Source: Turnera subulata (Eukaryota > Streptophyta > Magnoliopsida > Malpighiales > Passifloraceae). From it: a DNA stretch of 64,000 nt. Position 1 is the stretch's first letter. Each line of letters begins with the position of its first letter. Location: positions 51,180 to 115,179 of the forward strand of contig JAKUCV010002532.1 of assembly GCA_028386065.3 (NCBI GenBank). The letters run 5' to 3'. The position numbers and the translations under genes are program-made. Positions 3,786 to 46,469 of this stretch are shown piece by piece. The notes beneath the pieces were generated by a model. The model worked only from the letters and a program-made list of their open reading frames with translations, did no database searches and was not told the DNA's origin.

Positions 3786-5825
3786 AAAGTGTAAAAGCGC
3801 CAAGGTGGATAAGTCTTTCAAGAGAATTTTTTTTTTATTCTGTTGCCTATGAGTTATGGACAACTGAATTGCACTGTTGAACATATTAATGAAGAAAGAT
3901 CCCCCGAAAAAAGTGGAAAAATATTTTCATACAATAGTTCACCACTTGGTGTAGATGTCATGTTAAAAAGAAATAGTAGCCTAGTGGTTGTCAAGAATCA
4001 TATGTGGGATTTAGCAACCGGCTAACGACATTATAAAACTGGCAAAGGTGGTTGTCGAAATCAGCGTAACTAAACAAGCTTTACCAAAACTTTGGCTCCA
4101 ATTTCATTTAACCATTAAATTCCATTTGAGATTTTGTTAATTCAACCAAATTTTTCTCTTTCTACAGTAAGGTTGAAGCCTTTGAGTTTGGAAAAATTAT
4201 AAGATGGAACAGGTCTTCTAGCTAGCCCATTCCGTGGGAAACGATAACAAAAGTATCATTAGGCAAATTGTAGGCATCCTCCATCCCTCTCCCGAGTGTG
4301 ACTGTATTTACTCCTGATGCAAGAAAATGACAACAAGAGTGTGAAGAGGAGGAGGTGAAGCGTGATCCCCGCCATTGTATCTATTCATTGAATACAAACA
4401 TGAGCATTTAAGAATAAAAAAGAAAACGTTGGATTAGTTCAAAGTGGTAATCGACTTGGTTTTGTTTGAGTATTCGAGAATTCTTGTATCCATAAAAATT
4501 CGGTACGAAAACTCACCTAGCCAATTGAGTAAATTGGATTGGATCTAGATTAATCTGACGAAGCTCTCATAGGCAAACAAAAAAAAATGAATACACATAG
4601 AAACAAAAATAAAGGCAATAAAAGCAGGACTGATATACGAGTTAATTAAAAGTTGGATCATCATCAACAACAACCAGGGTTCTACGTTGCAGTTTAATAG
4701 ACAGGGGGTAGGTGTGTGCAACCAGTGGCTAGCAATAGAGCAGTCATGTGGTGCCTTTTGCACCGTGGAATGACGCCAACAGAAATGCAGGATAACTGAA
4801 ATATTTATTGCAGGCCAGTGCATGCTTCTGGAAAGAATGAAAAAAAGCTAGGTAAGCCATCCTCAATGAAAAGACAATCCTTTAATTTTTTTCAACATTG
4901 AAAAGAGTATTCCTAATTACTTTAAGTGCTAACTAACCACTAATAATAATAGTGTGAAAATACCATGGCCCAACGATAAAATTTAATGCTCAATCATTCT
5001 CTAATTAAGTTTCAATCTTTGCCTGCCGCATTAAAATATTCTCCTATTAGATCCTGAAATCTTTTTCCACTAGTTCAACTGTTCAAGTATATCTTTCTAT
5101 TAATATTATCAATAAATTATTCCTAGTTTGATTCCGACCTTCATAAAACCAGATTGTTTAAGCGAATCTTCATAAAATAAGAAGAGAATAAAATGCTTAC
5201 TCTCAAGAATTGGATTCTTTTCCCTAAAACATAAAAAGTTCCGCATTGTTAAGAAACAAAAAAAAAACAGATTCTTATAAAAAAAAAAAGAAACAAAAAA
5301 AATAATTATTCATCAAAATAAAAAATAACTCGTATCACATATTATTAAGTCAGAATCATGGGACAACGAGTCTCATGGCTTTTACTTAGGTGTGCTCAAT
5401 GTGAATTGCTAACATTCCTAAGGTTGGGAAGAAAGTAAAAAAAGAAAGAAAAAAGGTTACTAATTGTTTGCAATTGCAGACTGCAGCTTGTACAATTTCG
5501 TGTCAACAGGTACAACTTTACTAACGTCGTTTATTTTAAAAGATTTAAACTCACTATTGGTCTAGTCCCTCCTTTCTCTACCATCTATTATCTATATATA
5601 TATAATTGTGCTTACAAGCGAGCATATATCATAAAATATAGTTTGTGTTTTGGGGATGACAAATCCTTCATCCTAGAACACTCTGTTTGTGTGTTCATTC
5701 AAAGAAATAAAAAAAAAAGAGAAGAAAAAACAAAGAGAGAAATCCATCTTTCTTAGAAGTGGAGTAACTAGTGAGTGCCTATACCAATCTGCCTTTTCTT
5801 GTTGGCACAAGAACATCACAAAACC
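3786..5825. other. Intergenic: RAD51D to first P450; ancestral P450 promoter block
   Basis: No gene seen. From about 4200 to 4760 the sequence is similar to 37840-38160, upstream of the last P450 before the LINE insertion, so this is a duplicated P450 upstream region. It includes GGTAGGTG at 4708-4715, followed by GTGCAACCAGTGGCTAGCA. A TATATATATATA stretch at 5593-5604 is the likely TATA region of the gene at 5826. The rest is AT-rich. Confidence 0.55.
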
Positions 5826-7998
5826 ATGATATTCGAGCTCTTATCGGTGATCTCTGCTTTCCTCTTTTACATAATCCATAGGTTTTCCTTTGTTACCTTT
5901 GTTGAAGGAGGTCCGGGTTAACCGAACGGTTAATATCCGGTGGAGGTGGAAGAACCGGGGGATTAGGTGGCAAGGAAGATATCGTACATGTGGGCAATGC
6001 CGGGGCAAAAAATGGATTCCGATCCGAGGCAGGGGACGCACCAGTAAAGGAGGGGTCTTTATCGATTTCTCGAGCAGAAAACCCAGGAGCTCGCATTCGC
6101 CTGCCGTATGCGTTCCCTGGCAGTAGAGCGCCTCACCTACAACTCCACCTTGGCCTTCTCTCCCTACGGACCTTACTGGAGGTTCATGAAGAAGCTGAGC
6201 ACATCGGAGCTGCTGGGTACCCGGATGCTCAACCAGTTCCTCCCCATAAGAACCCAAGAGCTCCGCCAGCTCCTTCTGGTTCTTCATCGAACCCGAAAAC
6301 CCATCAGCGTAACGCAGGAGCTGCTCAAGATGACCAACAACGTTATCTCCCAGATGATGCTGGGGATCAGGCCCTCGCAGAGCGACGGCCAGGCCGAGGT
6401 TGCAAGAACCGTGGTCCGCGAGGTGACGAAGATATTCGGGCAGTTTAATGTGTCGGATTTCATATGGGGGTGCAAGAACTTGGACCTGCAGGGGTTTGGT
6501 AAGAGAATCGAGAACATACATGAAATGTATGATGGGTTGCTTGAGACCATCATCAGTCAACGCCAAGAAGAGAGGCACAAGATCAAGGACACCAGTAGTA
6601 GTAGTGGAGCTGGGACGACGAAGTATGAGGCTAAAGATTTTCTGGATTTGATATTTGATGTCATGGAGGATGATACAGCGGAGGTAAAATTAACCAGAGA
6701 TGATGCTAAAGGGATGGTTATGGTAAGTACACCTTTTTTACTCACCTTTTTTTTTTCTTTTTTTTGCTTTTCGTAGTTTTTTTTTTTCATATACCTGGGC
6801 TAGTTGATTGAAGTCCATCAAATTAAATTACCCTGGTTACTACTCTTTTTGGCCTATATCATTTAAAATTGGAGTGGTGTGTCCCCTACTAATGTGAAAG
6901 AGACAAGTTTATTTGTTGCACTCTCTTTTTTCTTTGTTTTTTTTTTGTTTCTTGTGGAAACTTGATGCAAAAGCCTTTAACCTTCCAGATTAAAAAACCC
7001 ACCGAGTCCGCAAGAAACAAAGTAGACGTGTAAAAATGAAGCTCATATGTTTTAATAGCAAACAATTTTGGCTCGGGTGTGAGCTATTATTTGAGCAATT
7101 TTTTTTTCTCTGAAAAAATTGGAAAAACCGAACTGTAAGTGTTTTACTATGATAAATGTTTTACTATATTGTATTGATGTGGTTGTGACCCTTCACTGCT
7201 TTTAGAGTAACACTCGAACACTGGTAAAAAAAATTAAAAAAAGACTCAAACTTTGATTGTTTCACGTCGTTTAACAACTTAGATCATCGCTACACAATTC
7301 GTGAAATGGGTCTAAATCACTCAATTAGCCTTATTGATCCAATGCAGGATTTCTTCACAGCGGGCACTGACACGACTGCCATTACTGTCGAATGGGCACT
7401 TGTTGAGCTCATCAACCGTCCAAAGATCCTAGAGAAGGCACGAGAGGAAATAAAGCAAGTTATAGGAGAAGACAGGGTTGTCCAAGAATCCGATGGTCCA
7501 AATCTTCCCTACATTCAGGCCATAATAAAAGAGACTTTCAGGTTCCACCCACCAGTTCCAACGGTTGCAAGAAAAACCACCCAAGAAACCAAGATTGCTG
7601 ACTACACATTGCCTCCAAACACATTATTATTTATCAACGCCTGGACCATTGGGAGGGATCCAAAGTATTGGGAAAACCCTCTAGAATTCCAACCCGAGAG
7701 GTTCTTAGATGGGTTGGCAAGCTCCATGGACGTTAAAGGCCAACATTTCCAGTTGTTACCTTTTGGCACAGGGAGGAGGATTTGCCCTGGTATTCCTTTG
7801 GCCATGCAATTGGTGCCCACCACATTGGCTGCTTTGATTCAATGCTTTGATTTTAGGGTGGTAGACGCAAATGGGAAGGAAATTAATGGTGATCATGCAC
7901 TAGACTTGACTGAGCTCCCTGGCTTGACAGCGCCAAGGGCTCAGGAACTTGTGTGCATTCCTGTGGAACGAGTGCCCATAAACGTTCTTCATCCATAA
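5826..7998 (+). CDS. Cytochrome P450, CYP93 family (flavone synthase II-like); N-terminal segment 5883-6074 appears complemented
   Basis: ER-anchored haem monooxygenase of the CYP93 family; CYP93B members convert flavanones to flavones or 2-hydroxyflavanones with NADPH-P450 reductase. Exon 1 is 5826-6722 and exon 2 is 7348-7998 (GT-AG, phase 0). ATG 5826 gives [19 protein letters not shown], matching the neighbours' membrane anchor. As written, the frame stops at 5919. Bases 5883-6074 give P450 sequence only if each base is complemented without reversal; that restores LPPGP, GPLIHRSF and RLGSVPCVV in frame. From 6075 the normal strand resumes (QKTQE, then [11 protein letters not shown]). Exon 2 has AGTDTT, ETFR, PERF and [11 protein letters not shown], with haem Cys at about residue 445. 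Total length would be 515 aa, as in its paralogs. Exon lengths and splice sites are intact, so the gene is probably real and the segment an error; I cannot exclude a true lesion. Substrate unknown. Confidence 0.8.
5883..6074. other. 192-bp un-reversed complement segment inside a P450 exon
   Basis: Read as given, or as reverse complement, this stretch has no P450 similarity, and the given strand hits TAA at 5919. Its plain complement, kept left to right, gives 64 stop-free codons with the proline hinge, the [14 protein letters not shown] region, [16 protein letters not shown] and SSPEIAKEL. It is in frame with ATG 5826 on the left and CAGAAAACCCAG at 6075 on the right. The best nucleotide match is to 12373-12560 of the paralog. 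The right edge could be off by one codon because CTCGAG lies at the junction. Confidence 0.9.
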
Positions 7999-9464: not shown

Positions 9465-11095
9465 ATGATCCTTGAGCTCATAGCATTGATCATTGCTCTC
9501 CTCTCTTTTATTATCACCCTCTTCCAAATAAGAAAACGACGTCGCCGGCTTCCTCCAGGCCCTATTGGGTTGCCAATAGTGGGTCACATCCACCTCCTTC
9601 AACCTTTACTTCACCGTTCTTTTCAAGACTTCACATCCCGCTATGGCCCTTTAGTGTACCTCCGCCTTGGCTCCGTCCCTTGCCTGGTGGTTTCCTCCCC
9701 GGAACTCGTCAAAGAACTCCTGAGAACCCAGGAGACCAATTTCTCTTCTCGAATGGCAACTTCAGCCGTTGAGCTCATCACCAAGAACCTCACCTCATCC
9801 TTTGCTCCCTACGGACCTTACTATAAATTCATGAGAAGACTCGCCACTACTCAGCTACTAGGAAGCCGAGTCCTCGACCAGCTTCTTCCGATTAGAAGAG
9901 CCGAGTTGCGTGATCTTCTCCTGCTTCTGCACCACAGCTCTCAAGTTGGGGAGCCTGTAAATGTCACTCAGGGTTTGCATAAGATGACAAACAACATATT
10001 GTCTCAAATGGTTATGGGGATAAAGTCTTCGGGGACTGATCGCCAGGCGGAGTTCATCAGAAGTGTGGTCCGCGAACTGGAGAAGATCTTTGGGGAGTTT
10101 AATGTTTCGGATTTCATTTGGTTCCTTAAGAGCTGGGATTTGCAGGGTATTGGGAAGAGGAGCCGGAAGGTGGCGGATAAAGCTTCCAAGTTTATGGAAC
10201 CGATCATCACAGAGCGCCAACAGTTGAGGCAGAAGATCAAGGGAAGTGGAGACCACTATGAGTCCAAAGATTTCTTGGATTTGTTGTTGGATGTTATGGG
10301 GGACGACACAGCGGAGATCAAAATAAATAAAGATCATGTTACACAAATGGCTTTTGTAAGTCAATATTGCTTTTCTCCAAACTAGTTAATTAGCTTAAGA
10401 AAGACTAATTATAGATGCAGGAACTTAATTTTTATCTATTGCAGGATTTCTTCATAGCCGGGACCGATACTACTGCCATTTCAGTGGAATGGGTACTTGT
10501 TGAACTCATCAACCATCCAAGAATTCTGAAGAAGGCACAGGAAGAAATAAAGAAAGTGGTAGGAGAAGGAAGACTTGTTCAGGAATCGGACGTCCCAAAT
10601 CTTCCATACATGCAGGCCATCCTAAAAGAAGCTCTTCGCCTGCACCCGGCTGTCTCAACAGTTGCAAGAAAATCAGAGAAAGAGTTCAAGATTGGTGGCT
10701 ACACATTGCCTGCAGATACACTACTAATAGTGAACTCTTGGGCCATTGCAAGGGATCCTAAGTACTGGGAAAATCCTTTGGAGTTCCAGCCCGAAAGGTT
10801 CTTGGAGGGAGAAGGAAAGTTTCTGGACGTGAGAGGCCAATTTTTTGAGTTGTTACCCTTTGGCACAGGTAGGAGGATTTGCCCTGGAATTCCTTTGGCC
10901 ATGCAAGTGGTGCCAGCTACCGTGGCTGCTCTGATTCAGTGCTTTGATTGGAAGGTGATAGGCCCAAATGGGAAGGAAATTGGTGGAGAAAATGTTCTGG
11001 ATTTGACTGAGCTCCCTGGCTTGACAGCACCTAGAGCACAGGAGCTTGTGTGCATCCCTGTGGCTCGAACGCCCATTAGTATTATTGGACTGTAA
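9465..11095 (+). CDS. Cytochrome P450, CYP93 family (flavone synthase II-like)
   Basis: Complete two-exon P450: 9465-10355 and 10445-11095, with a short 89-bp phase-0 intron, 513 aa. An N-terminal hydrophobic anchor (about residues 2-22) is followed by basic RKRRRR and the hinge [13 protein letters not shown]. The I-helix AGTDTT at 302-307 carries the Asp-Thr oxygen-activation pair; KEALR (ExxR) is at about 358-362, PERF at 413-416, and the haem loop [11 protein letters not shown] at 435-445 with Cys443. It groups with the genes at 5826 and 12307 by [15 protein letters not shown] and the C-terminal [20 protein letters not shown]. Family CYP93 is confident and subfamily B likely; the central [18 protein letters not shown] is diverged from canonical CYP93B, so the substrate may differ. 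All catalytic residues are present. Confidence 0.9.
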
Positions 11096-12306: not shown

Positions 12307-14551
12307 ATGATACTTGAGCTCTTATCATTATTTGCCGCTTTTCTCTTTATCCTCATCAGAATCAAACAACGTCGCAAACTTCCTCCAGGTCCCATTGGCC
12401 TCCCAATCGTGGGTCACCTCCACCTCATAGGACCCATAATCCACCGTTCCTTCCAAAAATTCACCTCCCGCCACGGTCCCTTAGTCTACCTCCGGCTTGG
12501 TTCTGTTCCATGCGTGGTTGTTTCCTCCCCAGAACTGGCCAAACAAGTCTACAAAACCCAGGAGATAAACTTCGCCTCTCGCTTCCGTACTATAGCCGTT
12601 GACCGCACCACCTACGACGCCACCATAGCCTTTGCCCCCTACGAATCACCATACTGGGGATTCATGAAGAAGCTGACCACCCAGGAGCTCTTAGGGACCC
12701 GAATGCTCGACCATTTCCATCCCATCAGGACCCGAGAGCTCCACGAGTTCCTTACAGTTTTGTTTCAGAATTCTACACTCGGTGGACGTGTGAACATGGC
12801 AGAGGAGTTGGTGAAGATGACTTTCAACAACATTACTCAGATGATGATCGGGATTAGGGCATCGGAGCAAGATGGGAGAGCCGAGGTTGCCAAATCGGTT
12901 GTCCGGGACCTGACAAAGATCTATGGAGACTTTAATATGTCGGATTTTATATGGTTGTTCAAGAACTTTGATCTGCAAGGGTTTGGGAAGAGATTCGAGC
13001 AGATATTGCAGAAGGGTGATAGTTTGCTGGAACCAATCATCACAGAGCACCAAGAGGAGAGACAAAAGATTAAGAGTAGTGGAGAGAAGTACGAGGCAAG
13101 GAATTTCCTGGATTTAATGTTTGATTGTATGGAGGATGAGACATCGGAGATTAAAGTTACTAGAGATCATATCAAAGGCTTGGTTATGGTAAGTAGTAAT
13201 TAATTAACACACATCTGCATAATAGCTTTTGATTACCTTTTCTTTATGTGCTGTGAGGAAGTTACAAAACATTTTTGAGGTGGCCAAAAATAAATAATAT
13301 AACCTAGTAATTAGTTAAAAATAAATTAAACTTGGTGTGGTTGGAATTGTGATTTATAAGTATAATTTAGTAATATAACTCGAGTATTTTTAATAATTGG
13401 GTTGGAATACTACTGTGACAGAAGGAGGAGTGTTGAATTAATGTGAAACTATATATAAAACACAAATATCATTTGTTATATATGAACTATACCTGATGTC
13501 ACTCACCCACCCCATGATTAAGACTCTGCAAAATAAAATAATAACAGTAAAATCAACAACAAATTAGCATTAGACATCATACTGATCTAGACGTTATTGT
13601 TTCAGTTTAATTGGTTGTTGCGGCACTTGCTTCTCTGTCCAATTAAACAACTAGTTCTTGACGTAGGATTGATCAAAATTCCCCAGTCTGGACGGCAAAT
13701 AATTAGTTAAATAAGTCAATTGCTATCAAAAAGAGTTGACAAAAGGTCAAGTATTTTGGAGTTTTTTCTTTCTCCTGAAAAGAAATTTTAAGAATCATTG
13801 ATTCTAATGTGAAATAAAGTCTTTACTTTTTCACATCTTATAATATACCAATCAAAAAGAATCTACGAGATTTATGTACTTTTTCAATTTTGATGATCTA
13901 TTGCAGGAAATCTTCCTAGAGGCAACAGAAACTTCTTCCATTGCAGTGGAATGGGCACTAGCCGAACTCATCAACAATCCAAAAGCTCTAGAGAAGGCAC
14001 AAGAGGAAATAAAGAGAGTGGTAGGAGACAACAGGGTTGTTAAAGAATCAGACATTCTAAATCTTCCTTACATCCAGGCTATCATAAAAGAAACTCTTCG
14101 ATTGCACCCACCTGTCCCATTGGTTGGAAGACAGGCAAAACAAGAATGCAAGGTTAACGGCTATACAATACCTGCAAGAACACTGCTATTTGTTAATGCT
14201 TGGGCCATGGGAAGAGATCCAAAGTATTGGGCAAATGCTTCAGAGTTTCAGCCCGAGAGATTCATAAGTGGGGAAGTGAACCACATAGACGTTAGAGGCC
14301 AACATTTTGAGTTGTTACCCTTTGGCACTGGAAGGAGGATTTGCCCTGGAATTTCTCTGGCCTTGCAATTGGTGACAACTACATTGGCTGCCCTGCTTCA
14401 GTGCTTTGAACTGAAGCCTGTGGATCATAATGGAAAAGAAATTATTGGAAAACTAGACATGGCCGAGCTCCCTGGGTCATCAGCCCCAAAAGCCCAAGAG
14501 CTTTTGTGCATTCCTGTGGCTAGGGTGCCCATTGATATTCTTGGTCCATAA
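12307..14551 (+). CDS. Cytochrome P450, CYP93 family, with aberrant I-helix motif
   Basis: Complete two-exon gene: 12307-13188 and 13907-14551, 508 aa. N-terminal anchor MILELLSLFAAFLFILI, hinge [22 protein letters not shown] (about 411-414) and haem loop [11 protein letters not shown] (Cys about 440) are all intact. The odd part is the I-helix start. Where the neighbours have [10 protein letters not shown], this gene has EIFLEATETS (residues 295-304). The conserved A/G-G pair is replaced by Glu-Ala, although an acid-Thr pair (Glu302-Thr303) is kept. It also has YESPYWGF where relatives have YGPYWKF. The frame is open and the splice sites are good, so it is probably expressed, but oxygen activation or substrate may be altered. 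CYP93 family confident, CYP93B-like tentative. Confidence 0.88.
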
Positions 14552-19447: not shown

Positions 19448-21511
19448 ATGACACTTGAGCTCTTATGCTTCGCTACGTTAATACTCTTTTTGCATGCATT
19501 GTACCGCAAAAGGAAACAATATTTGCGTCCCCTTCCTCCAGGCCCCATTGCCTTACCAGTAATCGGTCACCTTCATCTAATTGGACCCTTAATTCATCAA
19601 TCCTTTCGTGACTTGTCATCTATTTACGGGCCATTAATTCACCTGAAGCTTAGTTCTGTCTCCTGTGTTGTTGCTTCCACACCAGAACTTGCCAAAGAAC
19701 TCCTCAAAACCCATGAGCTCACCTTCTCTTCCCGCAATCAAACTCTAGCCACTGATCGCCTTACCTCTCACTCATCTTTCACATTTGCACCTTACGGTCC
19801 TTATTGGAAACTTATCAAGAAAATGAGCACATGTGAGCTATTGAGCAACCGAATGCTTAGCCAGTTTGTTCCCATTAGGACCAATGAGTTACATCGGTTT
19901 CTTCAAGTTTTATCTAGCAAATCTAAAGTTGGTGAGAGTGTTAATGTCACCCAAGAGTTGATAAAGTTGTCTAACAATATAATATCTCGAATGATGCTCG
20001 GTATTAGGTCTTCAGGGACGGATAGCCAATCCGAGGTTGCTAGAACTTTGGTGAGGCAGGTGACACAGATCATAGGGGAATTTAATGTCTCCGATTATAT
20101 TTGGTTTTGTAAGAATCTGGATTTGCAGGGATTCAGGAAGAGAATTGAAGGCATACACTGCAGGTACGATGGGTTGCTTGAGGAGATCATTAGAGATAGG
20201 GAACAAGTGAGGAAGCAAAATAAGAGCAAAGGAGAAGCAAACGAGGTTAAGGACTTTCTGGATGTAATGCTGGATGTGATGGAGAATGAAGACGATGAGT
20301 TGAAACTGAAAAGAAAGAATGTCAAGGCCCTGATTTTGGTAAGCAATTATTCAGTATTAAAAACAAAAAACAAACTTATTCTAGCATTAAATAAAAAAAC
20401 TTACTTATTTAGCGTTCTTCACTTACATTTATTTCTGTGGGGGGAAGGGTATTTATGACTTCGTACACAACAAAAAAAGAAGAAAAAAAGCTTCCCTAAA
20501 GGAAATTATCTTATAAATGGATAACATATTAGGTATCTACCTATTTTGTGACCGCTATGTTTACTGGGTAGTTAAAAAAAAAATGTTTTAAAAATATGTG
20601 GATGATATGTCACGCCAAAACTTGATAAATGATTAAATGTCAAGATTGCTCATAGAGTTGAATTAAGTCATGTTAGCCTTTGCATAAAAAAAAAGTCATG
20701 TTAGCCAATAAGAAGTTGACATGTATCCACTCATAATTGACCCAATTAAAATTCAAGGACAAATTGACTAAAATATTTAGCTTTCTCATTCTTTTTAACT
20801 TTGAAGTAACCATGTTCCTATACCCATTTGCATTTTTTTTTTTTTGGCTAAACATCAAAGCTTTTGTAGGAATTCTTCACTGCCGGAACAGATACAATGG
20901 CAATTTCAGTAGAATGGGCATTGGCAGAACTGATAAACCACTCAGAGGTGCTTGAGAAAGCAAGAAGGGAGATCAAAGAAGTTGTTGGGAATAAGGGTAG
21001 ACTTATTCAAGAATCTGATGGTCCAAATCTTCCATACATTCAGGCCATAATAAAAGAAACTTTACGGCTTCACCCACCAATCCCTATGCTCCCAAGGAAG
21101 TCAAGCCAAGATTGCAAGATTGCCGGCTATACTATACCTGCAAACTCTCTGCTGTTTGTAAACATATGGTCTATTGGGAGAGATCCCAGGTACTGGGAAA
21201 ACCCTCTAGAGTTTCTACCCGAAAGATTCTTACCATGCAACCAAGATAGCAAAACAAGCTTTATGGACATTAGAGGCCAGCATTTTGAGCTGTTGCCTTT
21301 TGGAACTGGAAGGAGGAGCTGCCCTGGTATCTCTTTAGCGATGCTACAAGTTCCCATTACAGTGGCTGCGATGATTCAGTGCTTTGATTGGAAGATTCCT
21401 GGTGATAATGCATTGGACATGACTGAGGGGCCTGGATTGTCAGCCCCTAGGGCTCATGATCTTGTATGCGTTCCTGTGGCCATGGAAAGCATGCCTAATG
21501 TTCTTGGTTAA
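19448..21511 (+). CDS. Cytochrome P450, CYP93B-like (flavone synthase II-like)
   Basis: Complete two-exon P450: 19448-20338 and 20870-21511, 510 aa. MTLELL starts the anchor, followed by RKRKQYL and [13 protein letters not shown]. The linker [23 protein letters not shown] matches the CYP93B pattern (KRxExxHxRYDxLLExII), so flavanone oxidation to flavone or 2-hydroxyflavanone is the best guess. The I-helix is AGTDTM: the Asp-Thr pair is kept but the next Thr/Ser is Met. KETLR, FLPERF (Leu where relatives have Gln/Arg) and [11 protein letters not shown] follow, with Cys about 448. ATG 19448 is preferred because every paralog starts at this context; an upstream in-frame ATG at 19424 exists. It closely resembles the gene at 23598. 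Confidence 0.92.
20665..20706 (+). mobile_element. Ultra-short A-tailed insertion with 14-bp target-site duplication
   Basis: AAGTCATGTTAGCC is at 20665-20678 and 20693-20706, with TTTGCATAAAAAAA between. It lies in the intron of the P450 gene at 19448. Confidence 0.65.
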
Positions 21512-23597: not shown

Positions 23598-25295
23598 ATG
23601 ACACTAGAGCTCTTAAGCTTCGCTACGTTAATACTCTTTTTGCATGCAATGTACCGTAAAAGGAAACAATATTTGCACCCCCTTCCACCAGGCCCCATTC
23701 CCTTACCAATAATCGGCCACCTTCATCTCATTGGACCCTTAATTCATCAATCCTTTCGTGACTTGTCATCTATTTACGGGCCATTAATTCACCTGAAGCT
23801 TGGTTCTGTCTCCTGTGTTGTGGCTTCCACACCAGAACTTGCAAAAGAACTCCTCAAAACCCATGAGCTCACCTTCTCTTCCCGCAATCAAACTCTAGCC
23901 ATTGATCGCCTTACCTATCACTCATCTTTCGCATTTGCACCTTACGGTCCTTATTGGAAATTCATCAAGAAAATGAGCACATTTGAGCTACTAAGCAACC
24001 GAATGCTTAGGCAACTTGTTCCCATTAGGACCACTGAGTTACACCGGTTTCTTCAAGTTTTATATAGCAAATCTAAAGTTGGTGAGAGTGTTAATGTCAC
24101 CCAAGAGTTGATAAAATTGTCTAACAATATAATCTCTCAAATGATGCTCGGTATTAGGTCTTCAGGGACAGAAAGCCAATCCGAGTTAGCTGGAACTTTG
24201 GTGAGGCAGGTGATGCAAATCTTCGGGGAACTTAACGTCTCGGATTATATTTGGTTTTGTAAGAATTTGGATTTGCAGGGATTCAAAAAGAGAATTGAGG
24301 AAATACACAGCAGGTACGATAGGTTGCTTGAGGAGATCATTGGAGATAGGGAACAAGTGAGGGAGCAAAATAAGAGCAAAGGAGAAGCAAATGAGGTTAA
24401 GGACTTTCTGGATGTAATGCTAGATGCGATGGAGAATGAAGATGTTGAGTTGAAACTGAAAAGAGAAAATGTCAAGGCCTTGATTTTGGTAAGCAATTAT
24501 TCATATATATAAAATTACTTATTTTGCATTCACTTACATTTTGTTTGTGGCCTTGTGGGCGAAGGTTACATATGTACAGAAACGAGAAGGAAAAAAAAAA
24601 AAAAAACTCTACTACTAATTTTTTCTTTAACGAAACATAAAATAATTTTGCAGGATTTCTTCACTGCCGGAACAGATACAATGGCAATTTCAGTAGAATG
24701 GGCATTGGCAGAACTCATAAACCACCCAGAGGTGCTTGAGAAAGCAAGAAAGGAGATCAAAGAAGTTATGGGCAATAATAATAGGCTTATTCAAGAATCT
24801 GATGGTCCAAATCTTCCATACATTCAGGCCATAACAAAGGAAACTTTACGGCTTCACCCACCTGTCCCTATGCTCCCAAGAAAGTCAAGCCAAGATTGCA
24901 AGATTGCTGGCTACACCATACCTGCAAACTCTTTACTGTTTGTAAACATTTGGTCTATCGGGAGAGATCCCAGGTACTGGAAAAACCCTCTAGAGTTTCG
25001 ACCCGAAAGATTTTTACCATGTAACCAAGAAAGCAAAAGTAGCTCTATGGACATCAGAGGGCAGCATTTTGAGCTGTTGCCTTTTGGATCTGGAAGGAGG
25101 AGTTGCCCTGGTATTTCTTTGGCGATGCAACATGTGCCCATTACAGTGGCTGCTATGATTCAGTGCTTTGATTGGAAGATTTCTGATGATAATGTATTGG
25201 ACATGGCTGAGCGGCCTGGATTGACAGCCCCAAGGCTTCATGATCTTGTATGCATTCCTGTGGCCATGGAAAGCATGCTTAATGTTTTTGGTTAA
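23598..25295 (+). CDS. Cytochrome P450, CYP93B-like (flavone synthase II-like)
   Basis: Complete two-exon P450: 23598-24488 and 24654-25295 (165-bp intron), 510 aa. It shares [24 protein letters not shown] and [13 protein letters not shown] with the 19448 gene, and also the AGTDTM I-helix, so this change predates their duplication. KETLR, FRPERF and [11 protein letters not shown] (Cys about 448) are intact. YWKNPLEF replaces the usual [11 protein letters not shown] 23598 is chosen from paralogs; the upstream ATG at 23502 lies in the leader and would add 32 residues not seen in the others. An ER P450 acting on a flavonoid substrate is the family inference. Confidence 0.92.
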
Positions 25296-25784
25296 TTAAT
25301 AGTTTATAATAAAAACGGCCCTATTAAGTCATTGGGAGAGACCAGTATGGATAGTCTTCTAATATACTCAAAATGATTTTTTTAAAATTTTTTTGTCTTT
25401 TATCCCACTAGATAATTAATTACGTATATTTTATTTATTTTGATAAAAAAATTAAAAATAAATAATTTAAATTACTCTAACCTAATAGTAATAACTACGA
25501 ATTTGGATTCGAACGTTAATTATTTAATTACTGAGCAATTTCGAACCTTTGTAGGTTTTGTGTATTGTCAAATTGTCATCCTGTGAGATGAATGGGAGAA
25601 GACGACCTCCCCCTCTTTCTCTAAATAAAATTGACACGTTCTAAGCGAATTAGGCAGGATACGTCCGGTCCACGTGATATTGCCCATTAAAGGGGTAGTA
25701 CCGTAGTAGTAGTTGCCAAAAAAATATTATTAATTTGTTTATTAAAATTAAACCTATACCAAATATTATAAATAGGAGACGGAT

Positions 25785-26040
25785 CACGCAGAGGCGGAAA
25801 AAAATTTAAAGGGGCCAAATTATTAAACTATTTAAGTTAATAGGGACTTAATTGAATGTACGAGAAAATATGAAAAAAAAAATAAAGGAAAAATGTCACC
25901 CCATGGGTTCAAACCTGTACCAACATCCTAACCACTAAGCTAGACAATAGCCTTATTATAATAAGGCTTTAAAGAATGATCTTGGGGTAGAGTGATGGGG
26001 GCTGGCCCTTACTCCCCCTAGATTAGCAGCTGGTATCATT
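25785..26040 (-). mobile_element. tRNA-related repeat remnant (minus strand)
   Basis: On the minus strand TAGCTTAGTGGTTA (25942-25929) resembles a pol III A box, and GGTTTGAACCC (25915-25905) a B box. They are only 27 bp apart, shorter than in an intact tRNA. The flanks GCAGAGGCGGA and GGGGGCTGGCCCTTACTCCCCC look like common plant repeat ends. Class uncertain. Confidence 0.35.
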
Positions 26041-27537: not shown

Positions 27538-29510
27538 ATGACGCTAGAGCTGATCATATGCTTCGCTATGACAATACTCTTTTTGCGTGCATTGTACCGC
27601 AAAAGGAAACAACATTTGCACCCCCTTCCTCCCAGCCCCATTGCCTTACCAATAATCGGTCACCTTCATCTCATTGGAACCCCAACTCAACACTCCTTTC
27701 ATGATTTGTCATCTAGATACGGGCCAATAATTCGCCTGAAGCTTGGTTCTGTCTCCTGTGTTGTGGTTTCCGCTTTTGAACTTGCCAAAGAAGTCCTGAA
27801 AACCCATGAGCACACCTTCTCTTCTCGCAGGCAATCACAAGCCATTGATCACCTTACCTATCACACAACTTTCGCATTTGGACCCTACGGTCCTTATTGG
27901 AAATTTATCAGAAAAATGAGCGCACTTGAGCTATTAGGCAACCGAACGCTTAACCAGTTTGTTTCCACTAGGACCAAGGAGTTGCACCGTTTTCTGCAAG
28001 ATTTAAATGCCAAATCTAAAGTTGGTGAGAGCGTTAATGTAACCCATGAGTTGATAAAGTTGTCTAACAATATAATCTCTCAAATGATGTTCAGTATTAG
28101 GACTTCAGGAACGGATAGCCAATCAAAGGTTGCTAGAACTTTGGTGAGGCAGGTGATGCAAATCTTGGGAGAATCTAACGTCTCGGACTATATTTGGTTT
28201 TGTAAGAATTTGGATTTGCAGGGAATTCGGAAGAGAACTGAGGACATACACTGCAGGTACGATGGGTTGCTGGAGAAGATCATCACAGATAGGGAACAAG
28301 TGAGGAAGCAAAATAAGAGCAAAGGAGAAGCAAATGAGGTTAAGGACTTTCTGGGTGTAATGCTAGACTTGATGGAGAATGAAGATGCAGAGTTTAAACT
28401 GAACAGAGAAAATGTCAAGGCCTTGATTTTGGTAAGCAATATATTATTCATATTTTGAGTTTTAGAAAAAAAAAAAAAACTTACCTTGCATTCACTTACA
28501 TTTATTTGTGTGGGCGAAGGTTATTATGATATGCCGTACACAACCAAATCTTCACTAAAAGAAATTATCTAGAATTTCTCCCTAGACAATACTTAGCCAT
28601 TTATTTACTCTGGGACTGGAAGAAATTAGCAAATCATGGGACAAGATATTTTGTTAGTGTACTTTTCTTTTGTTATAATTGAACTATATAATTTGATTTT
28701 ATTTCGTGATTATATATAGAACAAACATTAAATAAAAAAAAAACATGCTCAAGGAATGGCGAAAGTAATTTTGTATAGCTTTTTACATTTTCTTTAAAGT
28801 CAACCGATCCGCATTAAAAAAAAAAAAAACTCTTCATTATTAACTACACATAAAATTTTTTGTAGGAATTCTTCACTACCGGAACAGACACAACGGCAAT
28901 TACAGTAGAATGGGCATTGGCAGAACTCATAAACCATCCAGAGGTGCTTGAGAAAGCAAGAAAGGAGATCAAAGAAGTTGTCGGGAATAATAACAGGGTT
29001 GTTCAAGAATCTGATGGTCCAAATCTTCCATACATCCAGGCCATAATAAAAGAAACTCTACGGCTCCACCCACCATTCCCTATCATCACAAGAACGTCAA
29101 TTCAAGATTGCAAGATCGCCGGCTACACCATACCTGCAAACACTTTACTGTTTATAAACATATGGGCCATTGGGAGGGATCCCAAGTACTGGGAAAGTCC
29201 TCTAGAATTTCAACCTGAACGATTCTTATCATGCAACCAAGAAAGCAAAACTGGTAGCTCTATGGACATTAGAGGCCAACATTTTGAGCTGCTGCCTTTT
29301 GGCACTGGAAAGAGGAGCTGCCCAGGTACTTCTTTAGCGATGCTACAAGCTCCCATCACACTGGCTGCCATGATTCAGTGCTTTGATTGGAAGATTGCTG
29401 ATGATAATGCATTGGACATGACTGAGGGGCCGGGACTGTCAGCCCCTAGGGCTCATGATCTTGTGTGCATTCCTGTGGCCAAGGAAAACATGCCTGACGT
29501 TCTCGGTTAA
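27538..29510 (+). CDS. Cytochrome P450, CYP93B-like (flavone synthase II-like)
   Basis: Complete two-exon P450: 27538-28431 and 28866-29510, 512 aa. The anchor [16 protein letters not shown] is followed by RKRKQHL, and the hinge is [13 protein letters not shown] (Ser in place of Gly). The linker [20 protein letters not shown] is of CYP93B type. The I-helix reads TGTDTT: Thr replaces the small A/G at its first position, with the Asp-Thr pair kept. KETLR, FQPERF and [11 protein letters not shown] (Cys about 450) are intact. It is more diverged than its neighbours ([15 protein letters not shown]), so it may be subfunctionalised. Start and intron are fixed by alignment with paralogs. Confidence 0.91.
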
Positions 29511-30796
29511 GATAATATTAATGTTTAGAAAATCACACAAGTCCTCGAGGGTTAAAAAATCGTGAGAGATTAGTATGGATACTCTTCTAGTATAATATAA
29601 GGTAAAATCCTCGAGCAAAATAAGTGATGTATTTGTTTTCCGAGTTAGTTCCGTTGTGTTTTCTTAGACGGATTCTTTGGGCTTGTAGAATCCGGGTCTT
29701 ATCTTCAGTATCACAATCACAAGCATTCTGTAAAATAAATAAACAAACCATTATAAAGAAGTGGGTGAAGACGACCTATTAGCCAAGTACATTGAAATAG
29801 GCCCAATTGATGTTGTTGCTCATTAAAGCGATAGTAGTTAGTTGCAAAACAATATTAGTTATTTGTTTATTAAACTTAAACCAAAACGAAACATTATAAA
29901 TAGGAATATAGGATAAATATCACTCTTATCAGTGTAATATAATCCGCTTATATATTATTGGATTAAATCGATCGAATCCGGATTAGAAGATACAGAATCC
30001 GGATTAGAAGATACAGAACAAAAAATAAAACTTAATCCATTAGGTTCTCTAGGTGATTTTCACATTTAATTAATACTAAATTTACAAGTTAGCAAACAAA
30101 GTTGTGAAGTTCAATGTGTAGTTATTTATCGGGATGCTCTCTAACAACCGGTTGGTGAAGAAGATCAGTCCAGTTTCATCTTCTATATCTTCTAATCTCC
30201 GTATTAAATATTCGACCAAAAAAGTAGTAAGCCTAATACAAATAATTAGTATATAGCGATTGAGTGCTATGAAACCCTTAAAAAGCTACTCTCTTTCCCC
30301 TGAAACTAAGTCTTTTTGTGTATATTGGGACATCAGATTCCCTAATTAGTCTACCTTGTTTTAGTATCAAAAAAAATTAGTCTACCTTGTTTCTTGGGAG
30401 TTGTATCTGCTCCATTTCTTCTCTTTGTTATTGTTCTCTACTGTCACAGCTCAGCTGTTGTCACTAGAGTGTTATTGACTTTGATTCTCAAAAAAAAAAA
30501 AAAATTAGTATATATATATTCAATTATGCAGTAAGTAGGAAAAGTAATAAGAAATAAATAATCAATCATTCTTAAAAATATAATGTATGTAAGCAACGGT
30601 GTGCTAGCATTAGCCCGATCTCATCTGGATGAATTCAGGATCCTTGCTAGTATTAGCTAGCCCGACCTCACAATTGCCGTAAATCAAGTAATTTCTCCAG
30701 ATGATGCCCTTATACCGTATGTACGTACTGAGAAGTAATTGCTAGATGAAGAATTTAATTAGGATCCTTGCTACCATTAGCCGCCTAACCTCACTT
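29511..30796. other. Intergenic: P450 3' flank, retroposon and spacer modules
   Basis: No gene. It includes the CCGTTGTGTTTTCTTAGACGG module also seen downstream of other copies (17590, 22590), a 22-bp direct repeat GAATCCGGATTAGAAGATACA at 29974-30016, an A-tailed retroposon (30244-30514), and AGCATTAGCCCGATCTCA modules up to the LINE boundary at 30797. Confidence 0.5.
30244..30514 (+). mobile_element. A-tailed retroposon (~245 bp) with 12-bp TSD and a nested micro-insertion
   Basis: AATTAGTATATA is present at 30244-30255 and 30503-30514; the body ends in TTCTC followed by about 14 A. Inside it AATTAGTCTACCTTGTTT (18 bp) is duplicated at 30344-30361 and 30375-30392 around TAGTATCAAAAAA, a second, tiny A-tailed insertion nested in the first. 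The body has no recognised gene or tRNA promoter. Confidence 0.6.
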
Positions 30797-30939: not shown

Positions 30940-33900
30940 TTATACATATTCCAAACTACATTTCGGACCACACCATGCCTTGATACTATCTGAATTTTGA
31001 ACAACAGCTGAGAGATCATATGGGTAGCTTGGTTGTGTCGCTTTGAACCAGGTAAGAGATCTGTAGTATATCAATTCAAGTAACCTTCCCCAATCGACCT
31101 CAACGGCTTCAAAGATCAATTTATTCCTTGCAAGCCAAACAGACCAAATAAAGTTGAAAAACACTACCATCCAAGGAGCCCTTGTATGTATAGAACCTGT
31201 TAAACCCCACCATTGGGTAAACAACTCATCTAGCCTACGAGGTGTGCACCACTTGACCCCCCACCACTCACATAGCTTACTCAAAGTAACCCATATACCA
31301 CGGCAATGAATAAAAAGATGATCTCTTGATTCAATCTCTTCACCACAAAGAGGGCAAAGAGCATTCTCATGTGAGATTACATTGTTCCTGAGCAATATAG
31401 ACCTTACCGCGATTCCATTATTTATTGCCATCCATAGAAAACATTCCGCTTTAAATGGAGCACACCCCATCCACACCCAAGGCAGAGGAATATTTGAGCG
31501 TAAACCTCTACACATGCTTTCATAACCAGATTTCACCGAGTAGGTTCCTTTTGTACATTCGATCCACCTTCATCTATCAGACCCCTTCGAATGCAGAACC
31601 ACATTATCCACAACTCTTCTAAGTCTATCCACCTCCTCCACCTCCCATGAATAGAGACTTCTCCTCCATGAAAACTCCCACCTACCGCTATCACGTCCTG
31701 AAGCAAGCACCTCTGCCACAGTGGTATGCTGGAAGGATGATAGAACGAAGAGAGTAGGAAACTTCTCCTTTAACACTCCATCTGAAATCCATCTATCAAA
31801 CCAGAATTTGCAAGAAGATCCATCCCTTAGCTCCAATTGAATACCCTGCCTTAAGCACACAACACCATCGCAAGACTCCTCTCCTGACTTAACAATGTTT
31901 CTCCAATTAGCAGACAAACCTGACTCTTTAAATAAAGGCCATGATGAATCGGATTCCCCAACATATCTGCTACTAACAATTGTAGCCCATGAGGGCTTCT
32001 GTGAGGAAGAGTGATGGAAATTAACAAACCTCCAAAGCCATTTGAATAGCAAGCATTGATTTTTGATCATCATATTTTCAATCCCTAGACCCCCCCGGTT
32101 TCTTGGTCTGGCAATCTTACTCCACGCCACTAAACACATCCTCTTCTTATCACCTTTCCCACTCCACAAAAAATTCCTTTGCAGCCGTACAATTCTGTTC
32201 GCCACACCTATAGGCATCTTAAACATAGATAGGTAGTAAATGGGTAGATTACTCAAGACAGATTTAATTAGAGTTACTCTACCTCTAAGAGATAGAAGTC
32301 TTCCTCTCCATGTGGTCAATCGCGATCTGATCCTTGCAATTACCGGCTCCCATGCTTTGATTCTATTCATATTCGATCCAAGAGGTAAACCCAAGTATGT
32401 GATTGGCAGGAACTCAACCTTACTCTTCAATAAATCTGCAAGGTAGTTCATCCTTTGACATGACAGATTAACACCAATTAAACTGCTCTTGTGGAAATTT
32501 ATGCTAAGCCCAGAAAGATTCTCAAAGCATCTCAAACAACGTTTTAAGTTTAGTAGAGAGGTTTCATCATCTGGTTGGAAAAAACCCGTATCGTCGGCAA
32601 ACTGTAATACAACTGTCGCTGCCTCCTCTTGTCTGATCTCACGAATAATCTCTTTTGAGACATCTTGCTTTATTAAACAAGTGAGGCCCTTTGCCACGAT
32701 GTTAAAGAGGAAAGGTGACAGAGGGTCACCTTGTTTTAATCCTCTATGAGCTGTGAAATCATTGGACGGGCTGCCATTCAGTAAAACCGCCATTTTAGGA
32801 GACCCAACACACCCCCAAATCCACCGTATCCATCTCTTCCCAAAGCCCATTGCTCTCAAAATTTCCAATAAGAATTCCCAAGAAACTGAATCATAAGCCT
32901 TCCTGAAATCAATCTTCCAAATCACAGCCCTTTCCTTGCTTTTCTTTAACTGGTGAATAGTTTCAGAAGCAGACATCACGCATTTCAGGATCTGTTTGTC
33001 TTCCATGAAAGCATGCTGGTTCTCACTGATCACACATGACATGACTTTTTTCAATCTCTTTGCTAGAACCTTTGCCACAATCTTGTAAATACCATGAATG
33101 AGGCAGATTGGCCTGAAGTCTTCAAAAGTCTTCGCATCTGTTTTATTAGGAATCAGACAAATGAATCCCCTATTAACCCCATTGGGCATTTTACCATACT
33201 CGTAGAAGTCATTAAAGAGGTCCATTAAATCCCCACTAATTAAGTCCCATGCCTCCTTATAAAAATTTAGATTAAAACCGTCTGGGACCGGTGATTTATT
33301 ACCATCACAGTCCTAGATGGCCTCTTTGACTTCTTCAATAGAGAAAGGCCTTTCCATAATCTGCACTTGATCACTGGAGATTTTGTTGACCGGTGTATCA
33401 CCCCAAATAAAGTGAGTCTTTGAGTTGGACTTAAATAGATCAGCAAAATAGTCTCTGGCCGCTTGCTTCACTTCCTCCGGTTCACTAAGCACCGATCCCC
33501 CTACCTCAATTTCCCAGATAGAATTTCTCCTTCCAGGATTGCATGCATTAACATGGAAAAACCTATTATTTCTATCTCCAAGCCTAAGCCAATTAATTCT
33601 AGACTTTTGCCTCTAAATGCTTTCATGATATTTCTGCCTCCTTTTTAGATCAGCCTTCCACTCGAAAACTTGTTTCCTCTCATCTTCACACAAGACACGG
33701 CGATCAGCTTCCCTGTCCATGTTTGCTATCTGATTTTTCAGCTCCTTTATGGCCACGTCCACGTTCCCAAACACTTCTTTGTTCCATACTCTCAAAGATT
33801 GCTTTACTGAGCCCAGTTTCCTAATCAAGTTAAACTTTCCAGGATATCGCAAACCAGCAGCCCTCCACATATCTTTCAAGGATGACCCAAAGCTCTCATG

Positions 33901-34641
33901 AGATATCCAACAATTGAGGAATTTAAAAGGTTTAAAAACCCAATCCTTCTGTTCTTGCGATAGTATAATAGGGCAATTATCTGAGTCCTCCCTATCTTCA
34001 GCCCAAAGCTTGATAGAAGGAAACATGGAAAACCAGCTGGGGTCAAAAAAGGCCCTGTCTATTCTACTCGCCGACCTATAGTTCCACCATGTGAAATTTC
34101 TCCCCTGCAATTCAACTTCGCATAGGTTGGCTTGAGAGATAAATTCCGTTAGGGCCCGGGTTCCTCTGTTACAAATTCTGCCACTGAGCCTCTCTGAAGC
34201 CATCAATACCTCGTTGAAGTCACCTATTATCAGCCATGGAATATTCGATTCTTGGATAAAATTCAGTAATTCCACCCATTGTCCATTCCTCTCCTCCAGG
34301 GAGCAAGGTCCATACAGGCCACAGACACCAATGTGTTTACCCCCTGGGACAGTACCATCTACCATAATCCAATTCCTCCCATAACTTCTATTCAAGCAGT
34401 TAAAGAAGGTTGTTTCCCACAATAATGATAGCCCACCCAAACCTCCTTCCGCACCTACCTCTACAAAGTCAAAGGTTCCCCCACCCCATAATCTGCCATA
34501 CTCCACAAAACTCCAACCATGACACTTCGTTTCACACAGAAAAACCATTTTCGCCTGGACCTTACTTATTAAGGTCTTAATACTACTGCACTTCTTTGTA
34601 GAGCCAAGGCCCCTAATGTTCCAAGACAACATACAAAACAT
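30940..34641 (-). pseudogene. LINE ORF2 (endonuclease-reverse transcriptase) with three Trp-to-stop codons
   Basis: One frame of 1234 codons covers the APE-like endonuclease (MLSWNIRGLG, GDFNEVL, then AEDREDSDNCPI), the RT (FRPICLIHGIYKIVAK, FRKAYDSV, GLKQGDPLSPFLFN, catalytic FADD) and the C-terminal zf-RVT domain (CPLCGEEIESRDHLFIHC). The frame has stops only at 33615-33613, 33315-33313 and 31572-31570. In the relative at 38579-42277 the first falls at Trp (SIWRQK) and the second at AIWSCD; the third stands at DRxRWIE where Trp fits. There are no frameshifts. The element cannot make full ORF2 as it stands, but decay is light. It also suits the chromosomal relic of a formerly active copy. 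Confidence 0.85.
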
Positions 34642-42277: not shown

Positions 42278-42392
42278 AATAAAGAAACAGAAACTCCAAC
42301 GACATGTATCAGAGAAGATCAGGCGAAAATCAGGCGACAGTCCTAGACTGCACCCAATCAAAAGCTTCCTTATCAACGAGATTCTCAACAAG

Positions 42393-44441: not shown

Positions 44442-44464
44442 GGATTGCCCGTATTCTTTCAGTA

Positions 44465-44472
44465 TATATAAA
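44465..44472 (+). promoter_or_regulatory. TATA box of the P450 gene at 44539, adjacent to LINE
   Basis: TATATAAA in TCAGTATATATAAATCCAAC with the shared leader. The LINE target-site duplication ends at 44458, 6 bp upstream, so the original upstream promoter is now 6.2 kb away. Confidence 0.7.
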
Positions 44473-44538
44473 TCCAACTCCTGATGAAAAGAAAGGCAAC
44501 CCAAGATATTAACCAACTTTGTTCTTTTTCTTTTGCAC

Positions 44539-46469
44539 ATGAAAATGATAGTTGAGCTCTTATGCTTCGCTACGTTGGCCCTCCTTTTGCATGCATTGCG
44601 TCGCAAAAGGAAACAATATTTGCACCCCCTTCCTCCTGGCCCTATTGCCTTACCAATAATCGGTCACCTACATCTCCTTGGCCCCTTAATTCATCACACT
44701 TTTCGTGATTTTTCGTCTCTTTATGGGCCATTAATCCACCTCAAGCTTGGTTATGTCTCCTGTGTTGTTGCTTCCACGCCAGAGCTTGCCCAAGAACTCC
44801 TCAAAACCCATGAGCTCACCTTCTCTTCCCGCAAGCACTCCCTAGCCATTGATCGCCTTACCTATCACTCATCTTTTGCATTTGCACCCTACGGTCCTTA
44901 TTGGAAATTTATCAAGAAAATGAGCGCATTTGAGCTACTAAGCAACCGAATGCTTACCCAATCTGTTCCCATCAGGACCAATGAGTTGCACCGGTTTCTT
45001 CAAGATTTGTACTGCAAATCTAAAGTTGGTGAGACTGTTAATGTCACCCAAGAGTTGATAAAGTTGTCTAACAATATAATCTCTCGAATGATGCTCGGTA
45101 TTAGGTCTTCGGGGACCGATAGCCAATCCGAGGTTGCTAGAACTGTGGTGAGGCAGGTGACACAGATCTTCGGGGAATTTAATGTCTCGGATTATATTTG
45201 GTTTTGTAAGAATTTGGATTTGCAGGGATTCCGGAAGAGAATTGAGGACATACACTGCAGGTACGATGGGTTGCTTGAGGAGATCATTAGAGATAGGGAA
45301 CAAGTGAGGAAGCAAAATAAGAGCAAAGGAGAAGCAAACCAGGTCAAGGACTTTCTGGATGTAATGCTAGATGTGATGGAGAATGAAGACGCTGAGTTCA
45401 AACTGAAAAGAGAGAATGTGAAGGCCTTGATCTTGGTAAGCAATTATTCAAGATAAACTTTACTTATTTTGCATCCAAATTTATTTCTGTGGGGGAAGGG
45501 TGTTTATGACGCGGTACACAATGGAAAAGAGAGGAAAAAAAGCTTAAGTAGAAGGATCGGAAATTATCTTTATAAATGGGTAATATATTAGGTATCTACT
45601 ATCTACCCATTTTGTCACCACTACTGTATGTTTACAGGGTACTAAAGAAAAAATGTTTACAAAAATGTGATCACTCTGATTTAAAAATGTTTACAAAATA
45701 AATTTAGAAAAAAATAAATAAATGGCTAGCTACCTTCCTCATTCATTTTGAACTTAAAAAGAATAGGCATGCTTGCATACCGTTTCCACTTTTCTTTAAC
45801 GAGGCATCAAATGTTTTGTAGGATTTCTTCACTGCCGGAACAGACACAACGGCAATTACAGTAGAATGGGCATTGGCAGAACTCATAAACCATCCAGAGG
45901 TGCTTGAGAAAGCAAGAAAGGAGATCAAAGAAGTTGCGGGCAACAACAATAGGCTTATTCAAGAATCTGATGGTCCAAATCTTCCATACATCCATGCCAT
46001 CATAAAAGAAACTTTCCGGCTCCACCCACCCATCCCTATGATCTCAAGGAAGTCAATCGAAGATTGCAAGGTTGCCGGCTACACCATACCTGCAAACTCT
46101 TTATTGTTTGTAAACATTTGGTCCATTGGGAGGGACCCCAAGTACTGGGAAAGTCCTCTAGAATTTCGACCCGAAAGATTCTTATCATGCAACCAAGAAA
46201 GCAGAACTGGCGGTAGCTCTATGGACATTAGAGGCCAGCATTTTGAGCTGCTGCCTTTTGGCACGGGAAGGAGGAGCTGCCCAGGTATTTCTTTGGCGAT
46301 GCAACAAGTTCCCAACACAGTGGCTGCCATGATTCAGTGCTTTGATTGGAAGATTGCTGATGATAATGGACTGGACATGACTGAGCGGCCTGGATTGACA
46401 GCCCCTAGGGCTCATGATCTTGTATGCGTTCCTGTGGCCATGGAAAGCATGCTTAGTGTTCTTGGTTAA
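44539..46469 (+). CDS. Cytochrome P450, CYP93B-like (flavone synthase II-like)
   Basis: Complete two-exon P450: 44539-45435 and 45822-46469, 514 aa. The first ATG gives [13 protein letters not shown] 44545 aligns better with the MTLELL starts of paralogs, so either may be used. [22 protein letters not shown], the CYP93B linker [19 protein letters not shown], canonical I-helix AGTDTT, KETFR, FRPERF and [11 protein letters not shown] (Cys about 452) are all present. This is the copy with the most canonical motifs in the second subgroup and the best candidate for a working flavone synthase II-like enzyme. Its transcription may be altered by the LINE directly upstream of its TATA box. Confidence 0.93.

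What the first reader, a model, noticed from the sequence alone, without database searches (positions are those of the whole stretch)
5883..6074. A 192-bp coding segment is the complement of the expected P450 sequence without reversal
Taking each base's complement and keeping left-to-right order gives 64 stop-free codons that match the CYP93 N-terminal region: hinge [13 protein letters not shown], then GPLIHRSF, then RLGSVPCVV, then SSPEIAKEL. They are in frame with MIFELL...IIHR on the left and QKTQEL on the right. With this segment the exon has 299 codons, in line with 294-299 in the paralogs. As written the frame stops at 5919, and the reverse complement shows no P450 similarity. DNA inversion always gives the reverse complement, so no known rearrangement yields this parallel-complement state. 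The likely cause is a processing or assembly error or a deliberate edit; if raw reads really show it, it would be unprecedented.
Basis: partly seen in the sequence, partly recalled or inferred. Interest (0 to 1): 0.95.

Follow-up and report, generated by a model that had tools for sequence, protein, structure and literature searches.

The report
Mis-complemented patch in a plant gene
About 192 letters near the start of a plant cytochrome P450 gene are written as the complement in the same left-to-right direction, which normal DNA rearrangement cannot do, so this is most likely a data-handling error in a draft genome rather than biology.

Summary
The un-reversed complement of window 5883-6074 encodes a P450 N-terminal region in frame with both sides. 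Of 48 versions of the segment (24 letter permutations, two directions) only this one matches the paralogs: 117 bits, next 31.9. Edges fit best at 5881-5883 and 6074-6077. No other such patch was found in its 115-kb contig or in 36.6 kb from four other contigs.

The held assembly has the same letters here (601 of 601). The rest of the gene is open.

Best explanation: an in-silico slip, complement without reversal or reversal without complement, on one piece. "Unprecedented" needs qualifying: Seligmann reported the same A<->T + C<->G state as "swinger DNA" (passages). No reads could be examined, so a real event is unlikely but not excluded; genome-wide recurrence could not be tested.

The parts
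5883..6074 (.). Parallel-complement patch: un-reversed complement encodes P450 residues 20-83
5881..5883 (.).
6074..6077 (.). Right edge, uncertain by up to 3 nt; codon 6075-6077 reads Q where 116 of 116 outside homologs used have L (paralog A has Y)
5826..6722 (+). Exon 1 of CYP93B-like P450 gene (299 codons once the patch is read as complement); GT donor at 6723
6723..7347 (+). Intron, GT...AG
7348..7998 (+). Exon 2, open, with [10 protein letters not shown] haem-binding stretch; stop at 7996-7998
12307..14551 (+). Paralog A, normal; its 12377-12543 matches the patch complement at 75%
9465..11095 (+). Paralog B, normal; 9549-9719 matches the patch complement at 74%
19448..21511 (+). Paralog C, normal
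23598..25295 (+). Paralog D, normal
27538..29510 (+). Paralog F, normal
44542..46469 (+). Paralog E, normal

Best explanation
In-silico artefact in what is, by inference, the Turnera subulata draft assembly. The plant very probably has an ordinary CYP93B-type (flavone synthase II / licodione synthase-like) gene here. During assembly, gap filling or scaffolding, one piece of about 192 nt was complemented but not reversed, or reversed but not complemented inside a contig that was being reverse-complemented; both give this state. Two concrete routes fit: a reverse-complement routine that skips part of the letters, or a two-bit-packed block (A=00, C=01, G=10, T=11) that was bit-inverted without its order being turned. 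Shown: the state, its edges to 1-3 nt, no second patch seen in 151.8 kb, and an open remainder of the gene. Inferred: that it is an error, and at which step (gap filling or the scaffolding around it, about even odds).
For: Exact letter rule, no indel, length kept, both sides in frame. The rest of the gene is open over both exons. It differs from 12 of 149 conserved columns, as does P0002, an uninterrupted relative. Inside the patch 17 of 18 conserved columns match, and dN to each of six paralogs is lower in the patch than in the flanks. No near-identical second copy of the locus, normal or altered, was listed in the held assembly (that search scores only its best candidates). The published pipeline is short-read: DISCOVAR contigs, SSPACE, GapCloser with maximum read length 155 although two of three libraries were PE250, then a further scaffolding round (section 4.1 read whole), so the assembly holds software-filled and software-turned pieces. 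No established biochemistry copies DNA in parallel orientation (general knowledge).
Against: No read, transcript or second assembly was seen. I found no description of such a bug: searches for the wording of this error gave nothing on point among the papers listed (5 of 5, 20 of 96), and two for software or gap-closing faults held no paper at their term minimum. A filler that joins by overlaps should not make these junctions. A systematic bug should hit many places, yet only one was seen in 151.8 kb, 4.5 kb of it N. The right-edge codon is Q where 116 of 116 homologs used have L, which could be a junction scar or plain divergence. The 12 differing columns lie above the homologs' upper quartile of 6, so some loosening of the gene is not excluded.
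Confidence: 0.9

Rival explanations
1. Real event: a DNA polymerase put in the same base as the template, instead of its partner, for about 192 nt ('swinger' replication, rule A<->T + C<->G), leaving a recently broken gene.
For: Seligmann describes swinger DNA in database records, seen so far only under this rule, and 16S rDNA of this kind inside an otherwise regular insect mitogenome (passages; citation). Decay data allow a real event: 1 of 18 conserved patch columns changed, which with a recalled neutral rate of 7e-9 per site per year and an assumed 2.3 nonsynonymous sites per codon limits its age only to under about 16 My.
Against: About 192 consecutive identity insertions with no other error have no known enzymatic basis (general knowledge). 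That only the complement rule is seen in DNA is what strand-handling mistakes would give. The rest of the gene is open.
Confidence: 0.04
2. Deliberate or accidental alteration of the record after assembly (a planted test or a curation slip).
For: A single clean patch in a place where it can be recognised; codon-aligned edges are allowed.
Against: The held assembly carries the same 601 nt with no difference. Edges are not fixed well enough to show codon alignment.
Confidence: 0.05
3. Ordinary inversion, gene conversion or divergent exon.
For: Tandem P450 array, where conversion is plausible.
Against: Inversion gives the reverse complement; that version and the plain mirror image are not among the 14 best of 48 and so score 25.6 bits or less, and the reverse-complement frame tested has no Pfam match. 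The best paralog is only 75% identical.
Confidence: 0.005
4. Chance resemblance.
For: None.
Against: E 8e-29 with 47 other versions as controls. In the whole-window comparison each hit involves the patch except one 34-bp match at 53578-53611; a second comparison in that call, without low-complexity masking, also gave two weak minus-strand hits of the purine-rich stretch 5701-5742.
Confidence: 0.001

Closest known systems
'Swinger DNA', rule A<->T + C<->G (H. Seligmann; e.g. 16S rDNA of Kamimuria wangi)
   Same: Identical letter rule, un-reversed, inside otherwise normal sequence (passages; citation).
   Different: Reported for nuclear and mitochondrial genes, rRNA genes above all; in the passages I saw, no protein-coding nuclear exon with the frame kept. 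Reality of those cases not established; the Kamimuria swinger paper itself was not seen.
CYP93B P450s (flavone synthase II, licodione synthase / flavanone 2-hydroxylase)
   Same: Complement-corrected protein: 75% identity to unnamed P0002, 63% to a Hevea protein named flavone synthase II (P0004), 61% to Ricinus licodione synthase (P0006); Pfam p450 E 8.4e-101.
   Different: As written, the reading frame stops after 12 codons of the patch.
Strand-handling errors in sequence processing
   Same: Produce complement-only or reverse-only sequence with sharp edges and kept length (reasoned, not from a source).
   Different: No documented case in GapCloser or SSPACE found.

Membership tests
CYP93B-type P450 gene | P450 domain along the protein, with PPGP hinge | tested here: met
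   Met only if 5883-6074 is read as un-reversed complement: Pfam p450 28-476, 338 bits
CYP93B-type P450 gene | Haem-binding FxxGxRxCxG | tested here: met
   [10 protein letters not shown] in exon 2; motif form recalled
CYP93B-type P450 gene | Open frame in the DNA as written | tested here: not met
   Stops at 5919 and further on
CYP93B-type P450 gene | Flavone synthase II / flavanone 2-hydroxylase activity | not testable with these tools
   Names come from homologs only
Swinger DNA A<->T + C<->G | Sequence equals template after that exchange without reversal | tested here: met
   Only 1 of 48 versions fits; judged against paralogs, the plant's own template is not known
Swinger DNA A<->T + C<->G | Abrupt edges with normal sequence on both sides | tested here: met
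   Edges resolved to 1-3 nt
Swinger DNA A<->T + C<->G | Present in the physical molecule | not testable with these tools
   No reads or DNA available
DNA inversion | Segment equals reverse complement of expected | tested here: not met
Assembly or processing artefact | Independent data from the same plant show normal sequence | not tested
Assembly or processing artefact | Similar patches elsewhere in the same assembly | tested here: inconclusive
   None seen in 151.8 kb, and only sequence with a relative in that set can show one; genome-wide repeat test unanswered

The most novel reading that the evidence does not exclude
The patch is in the plant's DNA: for about 192 nt a replication or repair polymerase inserted template-identical bases, making a heritable parallel complement in a nuclear coding exon, with normal synthesis resuming in register.
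Probability: 0.04. Interest if true: 0.97.

Novelty: not a real feature. Interest (0 to 1): 0.33.

Why it matters
If it were real, it would break the rule that DNA is copied by antiparallel pairing. As an artefact it still matters: it would show that an assembled genome can hold locally complemented pieces that ordinary both-strand searches cannot see, that gene models can be lost to them, and that 'swinger DNA' cases found by scanning database records need read-level proof. The check is simple: search each assembly against its own repeats and proteins after complementing without reversing.

Tried and rejected
Rejected on evidence: chance, inversion, mirror image and other letter exchanges; gene conversion from a paralog of the window (best only 75% identical); a near-identical normal copy elsewhere (none listed). 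The as-written patch has no match in the plasmid collection and the window no Rfam family at gathering score. At 5700-6300 there are no direct repeats and three short inverted pairs; one has its second arm at 6061-6071, just inside the right edge (11 nt, 91%, partner 5737-5747), which I take for chance.

Led nowhere or weak: a 6-mer direction scan gave the patch LLR -24.7, but 33 of 2632 windows were as low or lower, so it cannot find patches in non-coding DNA. A base-rate probe with the un-reversed complement of one 22-nt 16S rRNA site gave 0 exact matches in the prokaryote genome collection and in viral contigs; one site, exact matches only, and some records may be left out, so weak. The idea that 192 = 6 x 32 bases marks packed words cannot be tested because the edges float. 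Paper searches for such an error found nothing on point. A protein search with the window's PPR gene, meant to show whether the plant's own proteins are in the database, listed no close match and no Turnera protein among its 120 best of 924.

Full report
What is there. The 192 bases at 5883-6074, complemented letter by letter in the same left-to-right order, read as 64 open codons of a P450 N-terminal region: [13 protein letters not shown], then GPLIHRSF, RLGSVPCVV and SSPEIAKEL. On the left they continue [19 protein letters not shown]; on the right they run into [20 protein letters not shown]. Exon 1 then has 897 nt, ends at a GT donor at 6723, and joins an open exon 2 at 7348-7998, for 515 residues in all. 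Pfam finds p450 in the 64 residues alone (E 3.2e-9) and nothing in the as-written frame or in the one reverse-complement frame tested.

Is it more than chance. I made the 24 letter permutations of the patch in both directions and searched each, plus strand, against the window with 5801-6700 masked. The un-reversed complement scored 117 bits (75% over 167 nt of paralog 12377-12543); the next of the 48 scored 31.9. Searching the whole window's un-reversed complement against the window returned this patch with its paralogs plus one 34-bp match at 53578-53611. A second comparison in the same call, of 5601-6750 without low-complexity masking, also gave two weak minus-strand hits of the purine-rich stretch 5701-5742. 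Plant P450s from outside match the complemented window here, e.g. P0006 102 bits and P0016 98 bits (list printed to P0052). Some of those alignments run on to 6125-6152, past the edge, by extension. An antisense frame across the patch likewise matches antisense frames of the complemented paralogs; that is the same signal read on the other strand.

Edges. A column comparison with six paralogs put the best patch at 5882-6074 (471 bits, overstated because paralogs are related). Starts at 5881-5883 and ends at 6074, 6076 or 6077 are within about 3 bits, so the length is 192-197 nt and codon alignment of both edges is not proven. P0002 has KRKQW at the place where the patch begins, which supports a start no later than 5883. 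The codon at the right edge, 6075-6077, reads Q; 116 of 116 outside homologs used (of 120 listed, 4 dropped by length) have L there. Paralog A has Y, so this may be plain divergence of the subgroup.

Age and decay. Within the patch 17 of 18 columns conserved in at least 90% of homologs match; outside it 121 of 132 do. Over the gene 12 of 149 conserved columns differ, the same number as in P0002. That is above the homologs' upper quartile (range 0-15, quartiles 2, 4, 6) and inside the range of the six paralogs (3-25). Of 32 columns invariant in the homologs the gene departs at one, the Q codon; paralogs A, B, C and F depart at one each, D and E at none. dN from the patch to the six paralogs is 0.22-0.28 against 0.26-0.35 for the flanks. 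The patch/flank ratio, 0.72-0.85, is above that of the nine pairs with paralog A or B (0.34-0.71) and within the range of the six pairs among C-F (0.5-1.7) (ratios worked out), so it says little. There is no clear sign that the stretch has been non-coding for long, but the bound is loose: under about 16 My from the patch alone, on a recalled rate.

Where it comes from. The held assembly places the window at contig C2302:51180-115179 of a 518.7-Mb, 7125-contig genome and has the same letters over 601 nt; no second near-identical place is listed. A search with the corrected 192 nt gives 7 matches, six on this contig and one on C6420, the best at 75%. C6420 is 84,592 bases long, the contig length given for the Turnera subulata protein P0026; that protein matches C6420 at 100% over 217 residues and 98% over 306. 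The genome is thus, by inference, the Turnera subulata draft (Passifloraceae, Malpighiales). The paper gives 7877 scaffolds (passage) against 7125 contigs held, a difference I did not resolve. Its assembly section, read whole, says: PCR-free PE250 shotgun reads assembled with DISCOVAR de novo; scaffolding with ~5-kb mate pairs by SSPACE; gap filling by GapCloser 1.12 with maximum read length 155; then another scaffolding round (PMC9862265). The window also holds a 465-base N run.

Is it alone. In the 115,179-base contig plus 10 kb of C6928, 452 as-written reading frames of 60 aa or more searched against the complement gave 14 hits, each involving this patch; for the window alone it was 254 frames and 16 hits, each involving it. 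DNA comparison of the contig and 36.6 kb from four other contigs, 151.8 kb in all, gave no other patch beyond the 34-bp match named above. These tests see only sequence with a relative in the set. A genome-wide test with a complemented repeat was prepared, but the search machine did not answer.

What it most likely is. Any strand-handling slip that does one half of 'reverse-complement' on one piece gives exactly this: right place, right length, right frame, wrong letters. Bit-inversion of a two-bit-packed block would do the same. Either is simpler than some 192 successive identity insertions by a polymerase. Gap filling followed by renewed scaffolding is the stage at which separate pieces are turned and pasted, so I place the fault there, with about even odds for that detail; no bug report was found.

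What is known. Seligmann's 'swinger' papers describe systematic letter exchanges in RNA and DNA. For DNA they report only A<->T + C<->G, in nuclear and mitochondrial genes and rRNA genes above all, and cite the 16S gene of Kamimuria wangi (passages of PMC4942731, PMC6532905 and PMC7027195; the Kamimuria swinger paper itself was not seen). The original mitogenome paper lists that gene on the N strand and describes a structure consistent with other insects (passages of PMC3900512), which to me suggests a strand-handling slip there too; that is inference. So the state is not unprecedented in databases; it is unproven in molecules.

Verdict. The real-event reading keeps a small probability because no reads could be examined.

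Noticed in passing
window 35137-35535 (+): A P450 fragment whose CYP93-like N-terminus breaks off after about 60 residues into other sequence (by eye); a fragment or pseudogene on the normal strand.
   Followed up: no
window 31570-34641 and 38579-44606 (-): Two LINE-like retrotransposon blocks (named by eye from the frames), one with a 1270-aa open frame, inside the P450 array; their frames are open as written.
   Followed up: no
window 25345-25872, 29473-29712, 46969-47520: Stretches at or downstream of the ends of three P450 paralogs whose 6-mer make-up looks more like reversed than forward sequence; other low windows lie at 11977, 53737-53809, 56857 and 57433. Probably composition.
   Followed up: no
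L005 1-4062 (contig C2302 start): The contig begins with 4062 N, odd for a contig end; a withheld stretch or a scaffold trimmed inside a gap.
   Followed up: no
window 6075-6077: Codon at the right edge of the patch gives Q where 116 of 116 homologs used have L; possible junction scar, though paralog A has Y.
   Followed up: partly
L013 4699-6398, L012 4960-6735, L015 4571-6474: Further P450 genes on contigs C2301, C6928 and C6420 (frames, named by eye; that on C6420 also by P0026).
   Followed up: no
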